From IMG/VR virus record IMGVR_UViG_3300048694_000135, positions 1-30,181 of that record: a stretch of 30,181 bases of DNA; one strand, given 5' to 3'. The first letter of the stretch is position 1. Each line of letters begins with the position of its first letter. This DNA is from a virus. The position numbers were made by a program, and so were the translations under genes. A model generated the notes under the pieces. The model searched no databases, had not been told where the DNA came from, and was given only the letters and a program-made list of their open reading frames with translations. Shown here piece by piece: positions 10,224 to 28,473 of the stretch.

Positions 10224-10661
10224 TTAAATGAAAGCACGCATAGCCAACGGGTCACCAGTGACCTTGGCAATGCACTCATGGTCGTTCAGGATCATGAACA
10301 GTGCGGGGTCTTCCAAGTCATCCTCGCCGGGAACCTTGACCTCCCAACGATCACCGCCCCACTTGGGGACACGGATGTAGTCACCAACCTCAACCCATGT
10401 GCCTTCGGGCCAAGGTTGCATGGTGTCTCGATGCTTGAATGCGATGGGGCCAATCTCAACGACTTTAGCCACCATGTTGTTCCACTTTTCAGTCTCTTTG
10501 GTCTCCTCGACCAAGATGATTCCTGCACTGGTTGCTTTCTTTTTGGTTCGGCGCAACTGAACAAGCACACGCCCACCAAGAGGTTTAGCACCCGGGTTCA
10601 CGCTCGGAAATGCCCAAGCAAGTTCAGCGGCGTTTGCCACTTCGGGTTCATTCATGTTCAT
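10224..10661 (-). CDS. GroES-like co-chaperonin
   Basis: This 145-residue protein aligns along its length with bacterial GroES (cpn10), which caps GroEL. KPLGGRVLVQL (26-36) matches the PLHDRVIVK start. TSAGIILVEE (44-53) matches the mobile loop, with I48-I49-L50 at the place of the GroEL-contacting hydrophobic tripeptide. VAKVVEIGP (64-72) matches EVLAVGNG; VGDYIRV (92-98) matches VGDIVIF; ALFMILNDHECIAKV (120-134) matches the C-terminal strands. It is longer than GroES by about 25 N-terminal residues and a loop with WPEGTWV. It lies between portal and scaffold genes, so it probably tunes host GroEL for folding capsid proteins, as T4 gp31 does. No GroEL gene is in the window. Confidence 0.85.
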   Translation of the reverse strand: MNMNEPEVANAAELAWAFPSVNPGAKPLGGRVLVQLRRTKKKATSAGIILVEETKETEKWNNMVAKVVEIGPIAFKHRDTMQPWPEGTWVEVGDYIRVPKWGGDRWEVKVPGEDDLEDPALFMILNDHECIAKVTGDPLAMRAFI

Positions 10662-13515: not shown

Positions 13516-16500
13516 TTAAGCCTTAGCCTTTCGTTTGTTCTTTACCTTGATCAGCCCATTGTCGGCATTTGTTACTTTGCCGCCTTCTGCCATCTTTAAT
13601 TCAAGTTTTTTACGGCGCATATAGTCATAAACCTCTTGGATGTTGTTGGGATCAAACTCTCCCTTCATAAGTCCTTCTTGGTAGGTTTTGACTGCATCAA
13701 TGTTTCGTTGACCAATCTTTTCTGAAATAGCGTTTTTTCGCTTTTCCATTGCGCCGATTGCCATGTTCCTCAATGCTTCTTTTGATGCATTGGGGTATTC
13801 TGCTTTCATTTCCTTGTAAATGTTTTCAAATGTTTTTGGCATCAAAATTTCAACAGGCATATTTGGCATAGAGCCTGCATAGACGCCAGGGAAATCATGA
13901 CTATAAGTTGACGATTTTGATGGGCGCAACTTGCCAAACACATCCAATTCTGCCGCCACATTACCAACATAACCTTTAGGAACACCTTTTAGTTCTTCAG
14001 CCAACACAGAGCCAGTCAAATCTTGTATGTTGTACCCAAGCCGTTTTTGTTGCTCAACTAATGCCATACGATCCATGAATGCTTTACGCATATTCATGTC
14101 CGTAAAACCACTGATCTTTTTTTCTTTGTCTGATGGCAATCCGTTTTTCAATTGTTCAAAAAATTCTTTGGAACCAAACGGAGCCATGTCCTTAAATACG
14201 CCTTTTTTGCCTTCAAAGACCATGTTTCTCATGCTCTCATCAAGGGCTTTTTTTTCTGCCTTTTTAAGACCAGCCTGTTCCATGATGTCAATCATGATAT
14301 CTGTTGGAAAAGTAGAAGCGTATTCAGCTTTTGCACCCATGCGAACAGGAAAACCAAACACCCTTCCAGTTCCATTACCAAGCAACTGATTTTCTACAGA
14401 TGCTTCATTTATTCGATCCATTATTCTTTTTGCAATACCCTCATTTGAGGCTCCAGCAATTCTTTGTTTAATGTGTTGAAGATCACGCATATAGTCATCA
14501 CCGCCTTCTGTCAACACAGGCTTTTGCAGTGGAATATCTGATACTTCAGTTACCAACTTGTTTCGGCTGGTTGCGTCCCACGGAAAGATTTTGACTTGAG
14601 AGCCTTGCAAGTTCTCAATGTTCAAATCTTGTCGAGGAGCAAGACCACCTGTGTCAGTTACTTTGTATCGAATGCCGACATCAGGATCAGGCTTAAGAGG
14701 TGTATGCGGTTTATAGACACTCATGACTTGAGGGGTCAAAGCATTCAACACGCCTGACTTGCTTTCCCCAAACATAGCCTTATCAATCTCTTTTGCCGCC
14801 GCTTTGCCTAAAGCCTTTGCGCCTTTTAAGGCAGGCTTTGAGAGTGGAGCAAGAGCTTCAATAGCACCAGATGTATCTTCTGGAATTATCGGGACATTTG
14901 CCTTGTTAATGTTTGTGATGGGCTGACCATATGATTTGCGTTCAAGCGTCCGAGCCAACTCAGGAATTCGCAAAAAATTTGCAATTTCCTCTGTTACGGG
15001 GTTTTTGTAACCAAACTGTTCTTTGGATGCGTCTTCAATTGACTTTGCCAGATCAGCCGCCATCCCCCAACCTTCACTACGAGGAGTGGCTTTAACTTCA
15101 CCTCCCTTGTCAAACCCCCGATCCTCAACCTCCATCATCATGGCATCGGGGTTGTCAGTGATCTGGACAGGCTTAGGCTCTTCCATCTGGGTTGCGCCAA
15201 TACCGACAGGGGCGGCAACCGAATACATCGGAAAGCCCTTCTCGGTGAACTCCTGACGCATCTCAGGCGTAATCTTGAATGAGTGCAAATCAATGTAATT
15301 TGGTTCACCAGAACGAATCATGCCAAGACCAGCACGATCCTGAACCATCTTTTCTCCAGATTGGAGAGGCATGGTCTCAACCTGAACGCCATACTTCTTG
15401 CCAAGGCTGTTGAGGTAGTCGGGCAACATCTTGTCGTAAAAGCCCTTCATGCCTTCGCCGCCCACTTGCAGGTCAAGGCCAGTCAAAGTCTTTTTACCTT
15501 CACTGACGCTACCAGCAGGGAATTCTTTACCTTCTCCGCTGACAATCTTTTGAGCGACTTCTTTGCCAACCATGTTTTCCAACTGGCTTTCAGTCATGGT
15601 TGGCTCGTTTAAAGCAACTCGCCCATTTTTATCAACGGCAGTTAAAGAATATGTGCCATCAGCATTTTTGCCATAGTTGATTTCGTTGAGATGCCTGCTC
15701 AGGTCATAGCGTTCTGCTTGCACAACCCCGGGAGAGATGGCAACCCTGTCATATCCCTTTTCAGCGGCATCGGCAAGGATGCGGTTCATCATCAACTCAT
15801 GCCAGTTCTTTTTGAAGGGTGCGTCAGGAACGCCTTCTCTGGCTTTGAGTCGAGCCTGATGCAGAGACATTTGCTTTTCGCTCTCACCCAAGAAATCAGC
15901 CAACTTGCGGGGATCATCTGCAATTCTTTGAGCCATGTTTTGACCAAGTGTGGCGGCTTTTTCTTCAGCCACGCCCTCTTTGATCATTGTTTGTTTTATG
16001 TCTTCAGCAACTCTTTTTTGCAGATCATTTAGGTAGTCAACATACTCTTGCTCTGCATTTTTATTTGCATAACCCTTCTTGCGCCCTGCCTGATGCCAGT
16101 CAGATTGAATCTCCTCGACATGAAGCACTCTTTCGCCTTCAGGTGTTACACGATCAGATACACGAGCATGAGCAATCACATTCGGCTCATCATAGTGACT
16201 TGAACGAAATGCCTCTTGTTTTTCAGCGGCAAGAAGTTTGTCGTGCATATATTGATCATCTGCACCAGCGGCACGCCTCCAATCAAGGCGACCATACTTT
16301 TGTTTCATCTCATCTTGGAATTTACGCAAGTTTTCTTTTGCTTGGTGAAATGTATCAGGCAACTTCAACAAAATCTCTCGGTAGTTTTGACCGCCGGGAA
16401 GAATTAAGTCAGGTCTATCATACTTAGGTGGATTTGCTTGGCCTTGCCCTTCCAAGTCTAATTTTTCAGCACGAGTATTCAAAAACTCTGCTTCTCTGAA

Positions 16501-19500
16501 ATACTTTTCAGCAGTCAGATTATTACCTTGCTTTTGCGCTCTTTGACCAGACCTTGTTGCCTGTTCAGCGGCATCATAAAGAGTGTTAATAGTGCTTTGA
16601 TCCCTGATGTTCATCAGTCGGATCAATTCGTTGTATTTCTCTTCTCCAAATGATGGGTCATCAATTGGATGTTGTTTGAGAGCTTTGTATTCTTTCTCAA
16701 GTTCTGCAAGCCGTTTTGCATCAAACTCTTGTTTGCCACCCAAAACCTTCTCTTCCAACTGAGCAGGGGGACGCTTCTCCAGTTCCTCAAGGAAACCTTC
16801 CTTGGTCATCTTGGGCAACGCTTTAATCTCGTCCAGTTTGCGGTGCTGGATTTCAGCAGGCTTCACGCCTTTGGCTTTCTCCAATTCCTTCATGAACTCT
16901 GCGCCAGTGCCCTTGGTGCGGGGCAATTCTTTGGCAACCTCGTCCACTTTGGAGAAGAAAGACAAAACTTTCTTTGCGCCACGTTCAGCCAAACCGCCTA
17001 TACCAAAGTGCTGGTCTTGCAACTCCAGCATCATGGTGTCAGGGTTGTCAGACACTACAACGCCGCCTTCTTTATATTCGTGCGGAGGCTTGACGATGAT
17101 CTCTTCGGGCAGGATGTCATAACTTGCGTAGGGAAACTCAGCCTGACGCTGGCTTGGCGACATATCCATGCGCTCTTGCACCGCCCGTGCCTCAGCCTCT
17201 CCTCCAAGCCGCTTGTAATAGTCTCTAGCAACATTTTCTTGGAGATACCTGTCGTATGCGGGATCAATTCCTTTTTGCAAGTCTTTGGTGTATTTGGTGT
17301 AGTCCTTGCCAGCCTGCTCCATGTCGGTGTATCCACCTTGGCGCACGAAGTCCTCATAAGGCATAGCCTGAAGCATTTTCAGACGTTCTTTTTTGAGCAT
17401 CTCATAGGCAATTGGGTCACTAAACGCAAACTTCGGGTTGCCGCCGGGGTGCATTCCCTCAATTGTTTGCACAGCGTGTTGCATCTCATGCAAAGTTGTT
17501 GAAGTTGGATTGCCCCGAAGACCTGCATCAAAAATATCCATCGCCAAAGAACCCGGAATTTGTCCATGGGAGGGAACAATGCTCAACTGCCCTCGTGTCG
17601 ATCCACTGCCACCTTCAGTAGTGATATTGACATTGCGGAGTTCTGGATACGCCTTGTACAACTCAGGATGTTCAAAGATGTATGGGGCATTCAAACCTTG
17701 TGTGCGGGGATTGCGCTGACGTAACTTATTCTCACCCTTAAGCCCTGAAATCTCTTCCCTTGCTTCTTTCTTGGCTTCGGTCAAAGCCTTGGGGAACAAG
17801 TCCTTTTGAGGGGTAGGAGCGATCTGCTCTTTAAGTTTGTCAATCGCCAGTTTGTTCTCAGCGATGCGGAGTGCCCGATCTTCAGAGGTCAGGAACTTTG
17901 CGGCTTGATCGCTTATCTCTTGCCGCCAGATGCCATCAGCACCACGGAAGGTTCCTGTGGCTCTCCATATGTCCACAGGATCAGCGCCCTTCTTTTCCAT
18001 CGCCACGGCTTTCATGGCTCGGTTTCCATCAAAGGTCTTGGCGTTCGGGCCGATGAATGTCAAGCCAACAGGCATACCCTTAGTCATTTGAGCCAGCGGA
18101 GCAACAGCCATAGCCGCATCAACCACTTCTTCTCGGGGGCGAGTTGTGCCACCAATACCACCAGCACCAGTGGTCAGGGGTTCGCCATAGCCTATGCGCT
18201 CAAGGGTCTTGGCAACAGCAGGCAAACCCACCAACTCACTGAGCATTTCACCGGGCGGGTTCTGATAGCCAAAAGGCTTGGACAGGAACTCATGCGCTTT
18301 CTGGACGGCTCTGGACACGCCCAAGGCTTCCTTGTTCTTGACAGGCGTTGCCTTCATCTCGTCTTTGTTTGCCCTGCCACCTTTGTCGAAGTGCTTCTCC
18401 TCCAACTCACGGCACATGACTTCAGGATCGTTGGAAATGGAAACGCTTCCACCTTCCTTCTTGCGCTCAAGGATGTTTAGCAGGTCTTCGTTGCCGGGGA
18501 ATACCACAAAGTTGCGTGTGCCTTCGCCACCTCCACGACTTCCACCGTCTAAATACTTGATGCCCGGAATTCCGTAGTGACGCAAATCCATTGATGCCGC
18601 TTCTCTGGCTGGATTTAAATTTACTTTTGCGCCACCTTCAGGGCCAAGGGTTGCGGCGCTAACAGACCCATAAATGCCTTCGCCTGTTAATTCTTTTGGA
18701 TCGCCATAGTATTTCATGGAAGGGTTGTCTTCCCAATACTTGAGAATTGCTTTCTGAACATCTGGATGTTGTTTATCAAACTTGACATCCCAATCAAGCA
18801 TTCTTGGAATTGCTTCGTCAGACAAATCAATTTTGTAAAGCCCACCAACTTCTGGTGGATTCTTTTCATACCAACTAGCAAACTCTTTTGCCGCCTTCAT
18901 GTGTTGCGGCGTGTAACCTTCATCAGCGTTTCCAAACTTTGCCAAAATATCTTCTGGGTCTTTATGAAGCATGGCATCTTCAAGCACTTCCATCATAGGG
19001 TAGTTGCTTCGCCTTCTGGCTTGTTCATAAAGCGTTAGCAGTTTTTGTTCATACTCTGGAGACCTTGGCTGATATGAACTGCCAACACCCTTGGCTTCTG
19101 CCGTGTAATGCCCATGACCATAAGCCTGTGCGCCCTCGCCAGTACCAATCTTTCTTGGGTCAAACTCACCCAATGGGTTTTTGGGTGTCGGGGCAAACTT
19201 GTGTGGTGAGCCATGCCATACAGTAAGGTGTGGCGCACCAGCGGCTGATGCCTTGGCAAACTCTTGCGCCCCATGCTTCAATGCGCCCGGTATTGCGGCT
19301 ATGGCTCTCAATGGCGATCCACGCCCTGTATAGAACCCACCAGCCAACTGCCCCAAGCCTGTGGCGGCTTGACTGACAGGCGACTCAGAACGGAAGGGGA
19401 TGCGCTTTTCGATGTCTTCCGAAGTCGGGAGGATGGTCTCTTCGCTCAGACCGGGGAGCAAACGGATCAGGGATTCGATGTCGCCGGGAGCGCCCAAGAC

Positions 19501-19620
19501 ACCAGACAAAGCACCACGGGCAAGATCAACAGGGACATTCTTGGCGGCTTCTGCATCCTGCTTGGATCGCTTTGCCTTGAGATGCGGGAACACGCCAAAG
19601 GCGGCTTTGTCGTCAGCCAT
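13516..19620 (-). CDS. Giant polyvalent-type protein: ART-like, zincin-like and EIQSDW domains
   Basis: This 2034-residue protein resembles the injected 'polyvalent' proteins described by Iyer, Burroughs and Aravind. Residues 131-385 look like an ADP-ribosyltransferase domain: VWHGSPHKF (H136), IGTGEGAQAYGHGHYTAE (Y172), and a final NFVVF strand. Residues about 640-850 hold a zincin motif (HEMQH, 711-715) with a possible third ligand in GGEAEARAV (807-815). Residues 1147-1470 carry HVEEIQSDWHQ, PDAPFKKNWHELMMNRIL and QAERYDLS, a domain known from other polyvalent proteins. The C-terminal 500 residues are unassigned. A 20-residue tag occurs at 396-415, 857-876 and 1488-1507 between these blocks, and an FGYxNP..LERxxYG module is duplicated at 450-483 and 1536-1569. 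The start has TGAGGT upstream. It probably enters the host with the DNA; enzymatic activity is inferred. Confidence 0.75.
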   Translation of the reverse strand: MADDKAAFGVFPHLKAKRSKQDAEAAKNVPVDLARGALSGVLGAPGDIESLIRLLPGLSEETILPTSEDIEKRIPFRSESPVSQAATGLGQLAGGFYTGRGSPLRAIAAIPGALKHGAQEFAKASAAGAPHLTVWHGSPHKFAPTPKNPLGEFDPRKIGTGEGAQAYGHGHYTAEAKGVGSSYQPRSPEYEQKLLTLYEQARRRSNYPMMEVLEDAMLHKDPEDILAKFGNADEGYTPQHMKAAKEFASWYEKNPPEVGGLYKIDLSDEAIPRMLDWDVKFDKQHPDVQKAILKYWEDNPSMKYYGDPKELTGEGIYGSVSAATLGPEGGAKVNLNPAREAASMDLRHYGIPGIKYLDGGSRGGGEGTRNFVVFPGNEDLLNILERKKEGGSVSISNDPEVMCRELEEKHFDKGGRANKDEMKATPVKNKEALGVSRAVQKAHEFLSKPFGYQNPPGEMLSELVGLPAVAKTLERIGYGEPLTTGAGGIGGTTRPREEVVDAAMAVAPLAQMTKGMPVGLTFIGPNAKTFDGNRAMKAVAMEKKGADPVDIWRATGTFRGADGIWRQEISDQAAKFLTSEDRALRIAENKLAIDKLKEQIAPTPQKDLFPKALTEAKKEAREEISGLKGENKLRQRNPRTQGLNAPYIFEHPELYKAYPELRNVNITTEGGSGSTRGQLSIVPSHGQIPGSLAMDIFDAGLRGNPTSTTLHEMQHAVQTIEGMHPGGNPKFAFSDPIAYEMLKKERLKMLQAMPYEDFVRQGGYTDMEQAGKDYTKYTKDLQKGIDPAYDRYLQENVARDYYKRLGGEAEARAVQERMDMSPSQRQAEFPYASYDILPEEIIVKPPHEYKEGGVVVSDNPDTMMLELQDQHFGIGGLAERGAKKVLSFFSKVDEVAKELPRTKGTGAEFMKELEKAKGVKPAEIQHRKLDEIKALPKMTKEGFLEELEKRPPAQLEEKVLGGKQEFDAKRLAELEKEYKALKQHPIDDPSFGEEKYNELIRLMNIRDQSTINTLYDAAEQATRSGQRAQKQGNNLTAEKYFREAEFLNTRAEKLDLEGQGQANPPKYDRPDLILPGGQNYREILLKLPDTFHQAKENLRKFQDEMKQKYGRLDWRRAAGADDQYMHDKLLAAEKQEAFRSSHYDEPNVIAHARVSDRVTPEGERVLHVEEIQSDWHQAGRKKGYANKNAEQEYVDYLNDLQKRVAEDIKQTMIKEGVAEEKAATLGQNMAQRIADDPRKLADFLGESEKQMSLHQARLKAREGVPDAPFKKNWHELMMNRILADAAEKGYDRVAISPGVVQAERYDLSRHLNEINYGKNADGTYSLTAVDKNGRVALNEPTMTESQLENMVGKEVAQKIVSGEGKEFPAGSVSEGKKTLTGLDLQVGGEGMKGFYDKMLPDYLNSLGKKYGVQVETMPLQSGEKMVQDRAGLGMIRSGEPNYIDLHSFKITPEMRQEFTEKGFPMYSVAAPVGIGATQMEEPKPVQITDNPDAMMMEVEDRGFDKGGEVKATPRSEGWGMAADLAKSIEDASKEQFGYKNPVTEEIANFLRIPELARTLERKSYGQPITNINKANVPIIPEDTSGAIEALAPLSKPALKGAKALGKAAAKEIDKAMFGESKSGVLNALTPQVMSVYKPHTPLKPDPDVGIRYKVTDTGGLAPRQDLNIENLQGSQVKIFPWDATSRNKLVTEVSDIPLQKPVLTEGGDDYMRDLQHIKQRIAGASNEGIAKRIMDRINEASVENQLLGNGTGRVFGFPVRMGAKAEYASTFPTDIMIDIMEQAGLKKAEKKALDESMRNMVFEGKKGVFKDMAPFGSKEFFEQLKNGLPSDKEKKISGFTDMNMRKAFMDRMALVEQQKRLGYNIQDLTGSVLAEELKGVPKGYVGNVAAELDVFGKLRPSKSSTYSHDFPGVYAGSMPNMPVEILMPKTFENIYKEMKAEYPNASKEALRNMAIGAMEKRKNAISEKIGQRNIDAVKTYQEGLMKGEFDPNNIQEVYDYMRRKKLELKMAEGGKVTNADNGLIKVKNKRKAKA

Positions 19621-25240: not shown

Positions 25241-25999
25241 TTAAAACATGGATTCTTGCGTTTGTTTAACAGGCTCGATGAACATATCAATCTGCTTGCT
25301 GGCTTGTTCTATGCGCTTACAGGCAATGTCAAAATATTTGGGTTCTTTCTCTATGCCAATAAACTTGCGCCCCATCTGGATAGCGGCGACACCTGTTGTT
25401 CCAGAGCCAAGAAAAGGGTCTAAAACAATCTCATTTTTACGACTAGAGCCAGATATACATCTTGTAGGTAGCGCCAAAGGAAAAGGTGCTGGATGATTGA
25501 TTAAATTATTTTCCATATGAGAAAACTCCCACACATTAGTTTGCATCGCCATATCAGGATTAAAGTAATCAGGCTTACCATTACTGAAGAAAAAAATATA
25601 TTCAATTCTTGGATACCATTTTATTTTTGCTACATCTGGACTTGATGGATACTTCCAAATTATTTCTTGAATTAATCTATGCTTACATACATCAACAACC
25701 CACCAAGGATGTTTATATACGCCATCAACATATTTACCTTTAAAATTCCAATAAATTGCACCGCCATTTTTTATCGGCAATCCGTTTAATAGTTTTTCAA
25801 CCCAATTTTTATATTCAATATCTTCTAAATTGTCTTCATAAGACTCATATGAAGATTTACGACCATTCCTGTTAAATCCACCAAAATTGTATGGGGGGCT
25901 AGTAACAACAATATCAACCTTTTTCAAAGTCGGTAAAATGTCCATGCAATCGCCCAAGTAAAGGGTTGCATCACCAATAATTACTTTTTCCATATTCAT
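25241..25999 (-). CDS. DNA methyltransferase, N4-cytosine or N6-adenine, beta class
   Basis: This 252-residue enzyme transfers methyl from SAM to DNA. The catalytic motif IV comes first (VVTSPPYNFGG; SPPY at 34-37) and the SAM-binding motif I follows near the C-terminus (DPFLGSGTTGVAA, 194-206, then FIGIEKEPKYFDIA), the circular order of the beta class. SPPY occurs in both N4C and N6A enzymes, so the base is unresolved. No restriction enzyme is adjacent, so it is an orphan, probably protecting phage DNA. The gene is visibly more AT-rich than its neighbours, which suggests later acquisition. Confidence 0.9.
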   Translation of the reverse strand: MNMEKVIIGDATLYLGDCMDILPTLKKVDIVVTSPPYNFGGFNRNGRKSSYESYEDNLEDIEYKNWVEKLLNGLPIKNGGAIYWNFKGKYVDGVYKHPWWVVDVCKHRLIQEIIWKYPSSPDVAKIKWYPRIEYIFFFSNGKPDYFNPDMAMQTNVWEFSHMENNLINHPAPFPLALPTRCISGSSRKNEIVLDPFLGSGTTGVAAIQMGRKFIGIEKEPKYFDIACKRIEQASKQIDMFIEPVKQTQESMF

Positions 26000-27321: not shown

Positions 27322-27364
27322 GTTTTTGATCGTCCAAAATTTTGTGTGCTTGATCTTTGGTCAT
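27116..27364 (-). CDS. Small accessory protein coupled to cytosine methyltransferase
   Basis: An 82-residue frame (MTKDQAHKILDDQKHGLHRYSKHLIIQALRLTGDL..). The ATG at 27364 overlaps the stop of the methyltransferase gene as ATGA, and its own stop is five bases before rusA, both typical of this operon. The N-terminal 35 residues resemble small phage proteins ending near TGDL; the remaining residues are less convincing and coincide with the best part of the competing frame at 27321. Function unknown. Confidence 0.55.
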   Translation of the reverse strand: MTKDQAHKILDDQKHGLHRYSKHLIIQALRLTGDLSGRVTTIVETDADQGVERMGLGFRKEFEQERHIGAVRRDRSRTIYLV

Positions 27365-28473
27365 TTCAATTGCCCATTTAATTGAATTTGTTTTCCGATC
27401 CAACTCATTACTGGCACAGCCATTGAACGACCAAGTGCGTTGTACCGTTTTGATATTGGTGGATTACCAACATCTGTCCATCCATCTGGGAAGCCTTGCA
27501 ATCTTTCACACTCAACTGCTGTTAATCGCCTTACTTTTGTTCCAATAGAAACTGCGTGTTGATCTGTAGCGTTCAAAGTAAATGACAACTCATGGTTGTA
27601 TCCATTACCACGAGGGCCGTTGTGATGCTCACGATTCAAGATATTTCCTTGAATGCCATACGCAACAAGATCAGACATCCTTCCCCAATCACCAGCCCTC
27701 AAAGTTGACGCTATATCTTCTTTTCCCCAAATGCCTATGCCTTGTCTGTCGAATGTGTTGATTGATACGCTACCGCTTCCAAAGCCATCTTGAGTTTCTC
27801 TGGTATGACTGTTTCTTTGAGTTCCATCCTTTTTAGCAATTTTTCGCAAATGCTCGGCTTCAAGAAGTATTGGTTGTCGATTTTGCCAGTCTCCAGTATC
27901 AAGGAGAGCAAAGACTCTTCTCCTCCGTTGCGGGACTCCAAACCATTTCGCATCCAACACTGCCCATTCACACAAGCCACCTCCTCCGCAAACAACACCC
28001 TCGTTTCCCCAAACAAATCCGTTGTTACTGAATTTGACCCCAACCAATGTTTCAAGAACTGTTCCAAAATCTCTCCCTTCTTGGCTTGACAAAGCGCCAA
28101 CAACATTTTCCCAAAGCATAAATCTTGCACCGCATACTTTTTGTGCAAGCCTGAAAACACGAACACCTTCAAAAAACAATCTTGATGAATGGTTCTCATC
28201 CTCTTTAATTGTTTGAAGCCCCGTTCTCTTTCCTGCAATGCTCATATCTTGACAAGGCGATCCAAAAACCACCAAGTCAATGTGCCCAAGTTTTTTCAAA
28301 TCTTCTTCAGTGATCTTTGTTACATCATGAAGATTTGGAACATTGGGATAGTGTTTTTTCAAAACGCTCGATTGATATGGAAGTATTTCTGCAACTGCTA
28401 CACATTCCCAACCTAATGGCTTCCATGCAACAGATACAGCCTCAATCCCGCTAAACAGACTTAAGTACCTCAT
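27361..28473 (-). CDS. dcm: C5 cytosine DNA methyltransferase (Dcm type)
   Basis: This 370-residue enzyme methylates C5 of cytosine in DNA. All major motifs are present in order: I (LSLFSGIEA, 4-12), IV with catalytic C74 (FGSPCQDMS), VI (ENVVGA, 122-127), VIII (PQRRRRVF, 181-188), a target-recognition region of about 190-320, IX (RLTAVECERLQGFPDGW) and X (RYNALGRSMAVPV). The length is normal. No matching restriction enzyme was found nearby. It overlaps the upstream SAM methyltransferase gene by ATGA. The target sequence cannot be read from the protein. The gene is somewhat AT-rich. Confidence 0.95.
   Translation of the reverse strand: MRYLSLFSGIEAVSVAWKPLGWECVAVAEILPYQSSVLKKHYPNVPNLHDVTKITEEDLKKLGHIDLVVFGSPCQDMSIAGKRTGLQTIKEDENHSSRLFFEGVRVFRLAQKVCGARFMLWENVVGALSSQEGRDFGTVLETLVGVKFSNNGFVWGNEGVVCGGGGLCEWAVLDAKWFGVPQRRRRVFALLDTGDWQNRQPILLEAEHLRKIAKKDGTQRNSHTRETQDGFGSGSVSINTFDRQGIGIWGKEDIASTLRAGDWGRMSDLVAYGIQGNILNREHHNGPRGNGYNHELSFTLNATDQHAVSIGTKVRRLTAVECERLQGFPDGWTDVGNPPISKRYNALGRSMAVPVMSWIGKQIQLNGQLK

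What the first reader, a model, noticed from the sequence alone, without database searches (positions are those of the whole stretch)
13516..19620. Modular 2034-aa protein whose domains are separated by a repeated 20-residue tag
Seen directly: a tag with pattern [ST]-[ND]-[DN]-P-x-x-M-x-x-E-[LV]-x-D/E..F-x-x-GG lies at residues 396-415, 857-876 and 1488-1507. It falls exactly between an ART-like domain, a zincin (HEMQH) block, an EIQSDW domain and an unassigned C-terminal block. From family knowledge, polyvalent proteins are injected with DNA and carry several effector domains. Inference: the tags may be cleavage, docking or packaging signals, so that one gene delivers four separate effectors. 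The FGYxNP..LERxxYG module follows tags 1 and 3 only, suggesting duplication of a tag-plus-module unit.
Basis: partly seen in the sequence, partly recalled or inferred. Interest (0 to 1): 0.82.

Follow-up and report, generated by a model that had tools for sequence, protein, structure and literature searches.

The report
Shared address tag on phage effectors
In one clade of phages, unrelated enzymes predicted to be injected into the host carry the same roughly 24-residue tag at their ends or at the seams where they have been fused, so the tag is probably the phage's loading label for virion cargo, although that function has not been tested.

Summary
The tags are real. The ORF is on the minus strand (13516-19620, 2034 aa); three tags start at residues 396, 857 and 1488, and 20,000 shuffles never gave three. 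DNA-pattern scans of IMG/VR and homologue searches found the tag, [KR]GGxVxISxNPDTMxLEL, in 216 loci. It sits between unrelated modules (ART, LPD23+zincin, EIQSDW, PcfJ and others) and, tellingly, at the extreme C-terminus of about 100 proteins, including stand-alone EIQSDW proteins. In all 208 testable loci the tagged gene lies between terL and portal. So this protein looks like a string of fused [cap][effector][tag] genes. Codons vary synonymously while residues stay fixed, and the model of the EIQSDW block leaves both flanking tags outside the fold. Best mechanism: a transplantable C-terminal docking or capsid-targeting signal, analogous to T4 and P1 targeting sequences. Packaging itself is inference. 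Cleavage is less likely: tags end proteins, the zincin occurs in only 13 proteins, and no head protease was found in the window. I found no earlier description. The receptor is unknown.

The parts
13516..19620 (-). 2034-aa polyvalent-type protein built of four [cap][effector][tag] units
19216..19617 (-). N-terminal cap module (residues 2-135)
   Evidence: cap HMM: 30 of 37 unique copies at protein N-termini, 6 right after a tag or GGxV seam, 1 borderline
18451..19224 (-). ART-like block (about residues 133-390)
   Evidence: no Pfam hit by itself; homologue L009 (HMM E 2.6e-97) hits PF18760 ART-PolyVal just above its cut-off
18376..18435 (-). tag 1, residues 396-415
18061..18273 (-). FGYxNP cap module, copy 1 (about residues 450-520)
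   Evidence: FGY HMM: 4 of 8 unique copies at protein N-termini, 4 after a tag
17893..18057 (-). LPD23 domain (residues 522-576)
   Evidence: PF18838 E 3.2e-12
17101..17805 (-). zincin-like peptidase block, HEMQH at residue 711
   Evidence: HExxH kept in 13 of 13 unique homologues
16993..17052 (-). tag 2, residues 857-876
   Evidence: modelled at pLDDT under 50, outside the fold
15214..16956 (-). EIQSDW block (about residues 889-1469), GNAT-like core with insertions
   Evidence: AlphaFold2 mean pLDDT 84.7 for residues 845-1515; 19 best structural matches all GNAT acetyltransferases or GNAT-fold, Z 8.2-10.7; Foldseek alone found nothing significant
15100..15159 (-). tag 3, residues 1488-1507
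   Evidence: low pLDDT in both models
14821..15015 (-). FGYxNP cap module, copy 2 (about residues 1536-1600)
13579..14676 (-). C-terminal block 'c2' (about residues 1649-2014), confident fold, weak YTH/PUA-like resemblance
   Evidence: pLDDT mostly over 90; best matches all YTH domains but Z at most 7.5
13519..13593 (-). C-terminal GG tail MAEGGKVTNADNGLIKVKNKRKAKA, possible variant tag
   Evidence: similar GGLIKVKRK-type ends in L001, L027, L349
19853..21274 (-). terminase large subunit, directly upstream
   Evidence: PF03237/PF17289
10976..13513 (-). portal protein, directly downstream
   Evidence: phrog_1216

Best explanation
The tag is a transplantable, mainly C-terminal sorting signal of one phage clade. 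Each injected effector of these phages is (or descends from) a unit [N-terminal cap][effector domain][C-terminal tag]. The tag, a GGxVxI stretch followed by a short capped helix NPDTMxLEL and a K/R-rich or GG end, sticks out of the folded domain and is bound by a component of the procapsid interior (scaffold, portal or major capsid protein; which one is unknown), so that any enzyme that acquires the tag is loaded and later ejected with the DNA. The 2034-aa protein is a head-to-tail fusion of four such units, and the internal tags are former C-termini that remain under selection. SHOWN: the tag, its spread over unrelated modules, its C-terminal and seam positions, clade restriction, the fixed terL-portal locus, the cap positions. 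INFERRED: virion location, receptor binding, ejection, and that internal tags still work.
For: Iterated tag HMM: 293 tags in 247 unique proteins, 104 within 12 residues of the stop codon (a few of these are chance hits in genome loci). Modules recombine freely around tags, e.g. ART-T-zincin-T-EIQSDW-T-c2, c1-T-c2-T-c5, c2-T-EIQSDW-T, and EIQSDW-T alone in 49 complete proteins. Tagged proteins contain ART-PolyVal, PcfJ, LPD23, RadC, GNAT and ParB-like matches. Cap/FGY modules are at N-termini or right after a tag/GGxV seam in 44 of 45 unique cases, the signature of gene fusion. In 34 EIQSDW proteins not fetched through their own tag, V, D, M, L, R, K of the C-terminal tag are invariant and the last 24 columns average 0.63 pairwise identity against 0.40 for the 36 before (the HMM chose them, so this is partly circular). 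Codons at invariant residues vary synonymously, so selection is on the peptide. Tags are outside the modelled EIQSDW fold. 208 of 208 testable loci have the tagged gene on the terL-portal stretch. Homologous modules in other phages (Dolichospermum phage Dfl-JY45, MW202675) have no tag. The exact-match pattern gave 112 stretches in viral contigs but 9 in 257 Gb of cellular genomes, about what chance gives. On the portal tree the deepest tagged clade and a second clade have terminal tags only.
Against: No proteomics, no binding data, no receptor. That the proteins are in the virion rests on gene position and on the polyvalent-protein literature. Sister phages (Caulobacter phage RW) have the same capsid genes without the tagged gene, so the receptor need not be tag-dedicated. 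L002, a close relative, has shorter GGxV seams without NPDTM at comparable borders. About 27 portal-adjacent tagged genes end without a recognised terminal tag. The short helix was predicted in one model only and at low confidence.
Confidence: 0.55

Rival explanations
1. The tags are processing sites: a protease of the phage (the built-in zincin or a head protease) cuts at the tags and frees the effectors as separate proteins.
For: Tags lie in flexible linkers between folded blocks; metallopeptidase self-processing is proposed for polyvalent proteins and P1 DdrB is known to be processed (PMC5512222).
Against: About 100 proteins carry the tag at the extreme C-terminus, where a cut frees nothing. 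The zincin block occurs in only 13 unique proteins, and any HExxH in only 25 of 113 complete intervals. No head protease found among the window's capsid genes (the contig is partial). The flanking GG is not constant.
Confidence: 0.17
2. The tags are only spacer peptides or recombination seams: hinges that let modules be swapped, with no binding role.
For: Position at module borders; extensive shuffling.
Against: A spacer is pointless at the C-terminus; core residues are near-invariant. The DNA of the three tags in this gene differs by several bases and codons vary widely, so it is not a conserved DNA seam.
Confidence: 0.1
3. The tag acts after injection, for example as a binding site for a host protein, membrane or chaperone, or as a stability signal.
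For: The proteins are expected to work in the host cell; a co-chaperonin GroES gene lies next to the portal gene.
Against: Unrelated effectors with different expected targets share one tag, and it is confined to one phage clade with a fixed capsid gene set, which fits a phage partner better than a host one.
Confidence: 0.13

Closest known systems
Polyvalent proteins of phages and conjugative elements (Iyer et al. 2017, PMC5512222)
   Same: Large late-region proteins with several unrelated effector domains (ART, zincin, GNAT, LPDs), thought to be injected
   Different: In the passages retrieved from that paper, and by word searches for linker, short motif and packaging signal, no shared short tag was found; here one tag unites unrelated effectors and marks their borders
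T4 internal-protein capsid targeting sequence (PMC3012670)
   Same: A diverse set of anti-defence proteins that share only a short targeting sequence
   Different: By general knowledge the T4 sequence is N-terminal and removed by the prohead protease; here the tag is C-terminal or internal and no protease was found
P1 DarB capsid targeting sequence (PMC9024508)
   Same: Signal for packaging a large polyvalent-type protein; 30 residues sufficient for a reporter
   Different: N-terminal, and the authors found no consensus shared by the Dar proteins
Encapsulin cargo-loading peptides (PMC8346489)
   Same: Short C-terminal peptides load cargo into HK97-fold shells; geosmin-synthase-like cargo repeats one motif between two domains and at the C-terminus, the same layout as here
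   Different: Different motif, cellular compartments; no sequence relationship claimed
N4 virion RNA polymerase (PMC4496689)
   Same: Giant injected protein; N- and C-terminal domains reported (as unpublished data) to serve injection and encapsidation respectively, which parallels cap and tag
   Different: C-terminal domain rather than a short tag; single enzyme

Membership tests
Phage polyvalent proteins | two or more distinct effector/LPD-type domains in one chain | tested here: met
   LPD23, zincin, ART-like, GNAT-like blocks
Phage polyvalent proteins | encoded beside virion structural genes | tested here: met
   between terL and portal
Phage polyvalent proteins | carried in the virion and delivered with DNA | not testable with these tools
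   needs virion proteomics
Capsid targeting sequence (T4 internal proteins, P1 DarB) | one short sequence shared by otherwise unrelated cargo | tested here: met
Capsid targeting sequence (T4 internal proteins, P1 DarB) | N-terminal position | tested here: not met
   C-terminal or internal
Capsid targeting sequence (T4 internal proteins, P1 DarB) | sufficient to load a reporter into the capsid | not testable with these tools
   bench experiment
Encapsulin cargo-loading peptide | short C-terminal peptide after a flexible linker | tested here: met
Encapsulin cargo-loading peptide | encapsulin-type motif and shell | tested here: not met
   consensus GGxVxISxNPDTMxLEL has no TVGSL-type core; the shell gene is a phage major capsid protein
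Self-processing polyprotein with zincin | peptidase present wherever the sites are | tested here: not met
   zincin block in 13 unique proteins only
GNAT acetyltransferase (EIQSDW block) | GNAT fold | tested here: inconclusive
   consistent GNAT matches at Z 8.2-10.7, no significant Foldseek or Pfam hit; acetyl-CoA site not examined

The most novel reading that the evidence does not exclude
A phage clade has a general, plug-in effector-loading system: any enzyme that gains one C-terminal peptide is loaded into the virion, several loaded enzymes can be strung on one chain with each keeping its own docking tag, and a second, strictly C-terminal tag (GGxIxxDDLILEERPL) marks the upstream of two such proteins.
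Probability: 0.42. Interest if true: 0.85.

Novelty: new variant of a known kind. Interest (0 to 1): 0.72.

Why it matters
It is not known how most phages choose the proteins they inject. T4 and P1 signals are known, but the P1 authors found no consensus among Dar proteins. A recognisable tag shared by unrelated effectors would let one list injected effectors from sequence alone, would explain how polyvalent proteins grow by fusion, and would give a peptide address for loading chosen proteins into phage capsids. It also makes a direct test possible: tagged reporter plus procapsid genes.

Tried and rejected
(1) T4-like 'MLIDNPDEMQSEL' proteins (about 263 aa) and 'RLNRWYLDDNPDEMSQELGV' proteins (about 855 aa) match the DNA pattern but lack the GGxV part and are conserved families of their own: rejected as tags. 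(2) Genome hits L266-L274: nine, near the chance number by my estimate, short or unrelated ORFs: rejected. (3) A first version of the GGKV pattern had wrong spacing and found nothing, corrected. (4) Sequence search of solved structures with the EIQSDW and C-terminal alignments: nothing significant; PADLOC: nothing. (5) Foldseek alone gave no significant match for either model. (6) Search for the receptor by relative divergence of capsid genes between tagged phages and the tagless Caulobacter phage RW: all genes are more diverged together, none stands out. (7) One row from a phage record was not accepted for structure prediction, so the alignment was rebuilt without that record. (8) Whole-genome search of four isolates with the protein found nothing, but lacked a positive control. 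(9) Full-text search for NPDTM: no paper.

Full report
WHAT WAS CHECKED. The ORF at 13516-19620 is on the minus strand and encodes 2034 aa. The three tags are at the stated residues and are beyond chance. The window is an entire 30,181-base IMG/VR record. It is a phage contig: terS and terL upstream; portal, GroES, a scaffold-position protein and a major capsid protein downstream.

THE TAG ELSEWHERE. Apart from two unrelated protein families they hit large proteins with the same context, KRGGxVxIS-[DN]NPDTMxLEL-xxxKMxxGG. A more specific pattern gave 112 stretches in viral contigs and 9 in 257 Gb of bacterial and archaeal genomes, where my estimate of chance is about 8. A profile iterated three times found 293 tags in 247 unique proteins; 104 of them end within 12 residues of the stop codon (a handful of chance hits, mainly in the genome loci, are included). 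After removing those, 216 loci carry the tag.

POSITION. The tag divides proteins into modules that recur in many orders: EIQSDW-T alone (49 complete proteins), c1-T-c2, c2-T-EIQSDW-T, c5-T-c2-T-EIQSDW-T, EIQSDW-T-c1-T-c2, and the window's ART-T-zincin-T-EIQSDW-T-c2. Thus the same EIQSDW module is a separate protein ending in the tag in L122, L158, L198 and L121 and an internal block here. Stand-alone C-terminal tags look like KRGGKVNMTTNRDTMFMELSNKKLKRK-stop or KKGGKVHISNNPDVMRLELLRKKHA-stop. More distant members end in variants such as KEKVTISPNMDVMQYELINRKAK-stop or KRGGKVSFASNVDAMRHELTQRQ-stop, and loci that the profile had missed show the same ends by eye, as does the published genome MW202545 (protein UOF78459.1). 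Because internal tags were fetched by pattern, their frequency is not measured.

FUSION. The first 135 residues of the protein are a cap module. Across the loci the cap was found at protein N-termini in 30 unique cases, right after a tag in 3, after a GGxV seam in 3, and once 86 residues into a protein; the FGYxNP module was N-terminal in 4 and right after a tag in 4. A module that is otherwise N-terminal, directly behind a motif that is otherwise C-terminal, is the signature of end-to-end gene fusion. In relative L001 (82% identity over its last 400 residues) a second cap stands before the C-terminal block. In relative L002 the comparable borders carry only the shorter GGEVxM-type seam, and in the deep-branching members interior borders also show only [YF]AxGGxV. 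So the long tag is an elaboration of a more general GGxV seam mark, and it is not indispensable at inner borders.

SELECTION. In 212 unique DNA copies the invariant residues are encoded by varied codons (for example V by GTC, GTT, GTG, GTA; P by CCT, CCA, CCC; L by six codons), so selection is on the peptide. In 34 EIQSDW proteins that had not been fetched through their own tag, the last 24 columns average 0.63 pairwise identity against 0.40 for the preceding linker and 0.45 for all columns. The profile selected these tags, so this comparison is partly circular.

STRUCTURE. The model of residues 845-1515 is confident (pLDDT 84.7, pTM 0.78) except at the two tags and their linkers (under 50), each with a short helix beginning at the NP of the tag. 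The second model, which starts at residue 1480, is confident only for residues 1649-2014 and shows no helix in tag 3, so the helix is uncertain. The EIQSDW block matches GNAT acetyltransferases consistently (Z 8.2-10.7, top 19 rows) with large insertions. The C-terminal block has best matches that are all YTH domains, but at Z up to 7.5, which is only a hint. The ART assignment rests on a homologue that reaches PF18760 just above its cut-off.

LOCUS AND CLADE. In 208 of 208 loci that contain terL or portal, the tagged gene lies on the terL-portal stretch. Tagged phages form a coherent group (capsid protein at least 86% and portal at least 60% identical to the window's), terL down to 51%. The sister Caulobacter phage RW (capsid 76%, portal 48%) has no such gene between terL and portal, nor do several others. 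The tagged genes are therefore an accessory cassette in a fixed place. On the portal tree the first-branching tagged clade and another clade have terminal tags only, and internal tags occur in two clades, which fits a terminal origin.

MECHANISM. The simplest reading is a C-terminal address that loads otherwise unrelated effectors into the head. Known parallels are the T4 internal proteins, which share only a capsid targeting sequence (PMC3012670), P1 DarB, whose N-terminal 30 residues load a reporter (PMC9024508), the N4 virion RNA polymerase, whose C-terminal domain is cited as needed for encapsidation (unpublished data cited in PMC4496689), and encapsulin cargo, where one motif stands between two domains and again at the C-terminus (PMC8346489). 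The present tag differs in position or sequence from each, so it is filed as working like a targeting sequence and not as a member of any of these. Cleavage is disfavoured because many tags end the protein, because the zincin is rare, and because no head protease was recognised near the capsid genes (the record is partial).

LIMITS. No virion data, no receptor, no experiment. Counts come from sets partly fetched by the tag. IMG/VR records are fragments. Absence from the literature rests on one full-text search and on term searches in the key paper, in a library that lacks many subscription journals.

Noticed in passing
L003, L122, L158, L198, L212 and about 50 further loci, ends of the upstream tagged gene: A second tag, GGxIxxDDLILEERPL, sits exactly at the stop codon and never inside a protein; when two tagged genes are present the upstream one ends in it and the portal-adjacent one in the NPDTM tag (33 pairs, none reversed). 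Its last residues overlap the start region of the next gene, so part of the conservation may be a ribosome-binding site.
   Followed up: partly
window 10224-10661 (minus): A co-chaperonin GroES gene lies right after the portal gene, conserved in place across the clade and its isolates.
   Followed up: no
L089, L087, L092 and others: A T4-like family of about 263 aa begins with MLIDNPDEMQSEL, resembling half of the tag; probably coincidence.
   Followed up: no
window 13579-14676 (minus) and L277:15282-16445: The C-terminal block resembles YTH (PUA-like) modified-base readers weakly, and a relative lies in a phage protein annotated 'type I restriction enzyme'; could be a reader of modified nucleic acid.
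   Followed up: partly
L270:5993-6224 and L274:6154-6505: Two marine MAG contigs share a short ORF with NPDTMFLEL followed by a conserved KLDNWVGNE stretch; not a phage tag context.
   Followed up: no
L354, L356, L277: Short GGRIGY / YADGGxV / MADGG motifs recur in the large proteins of related Pelagibacter and other phages that lack the long tag, perhaps a wider seam mark.
   Followed up: partly
window 25241-25999 and 27361-28473 (minus): Two DNA methyltransferases of different types, N6/N4 adenine/cytosine type and C5 type.
   Followed up: no
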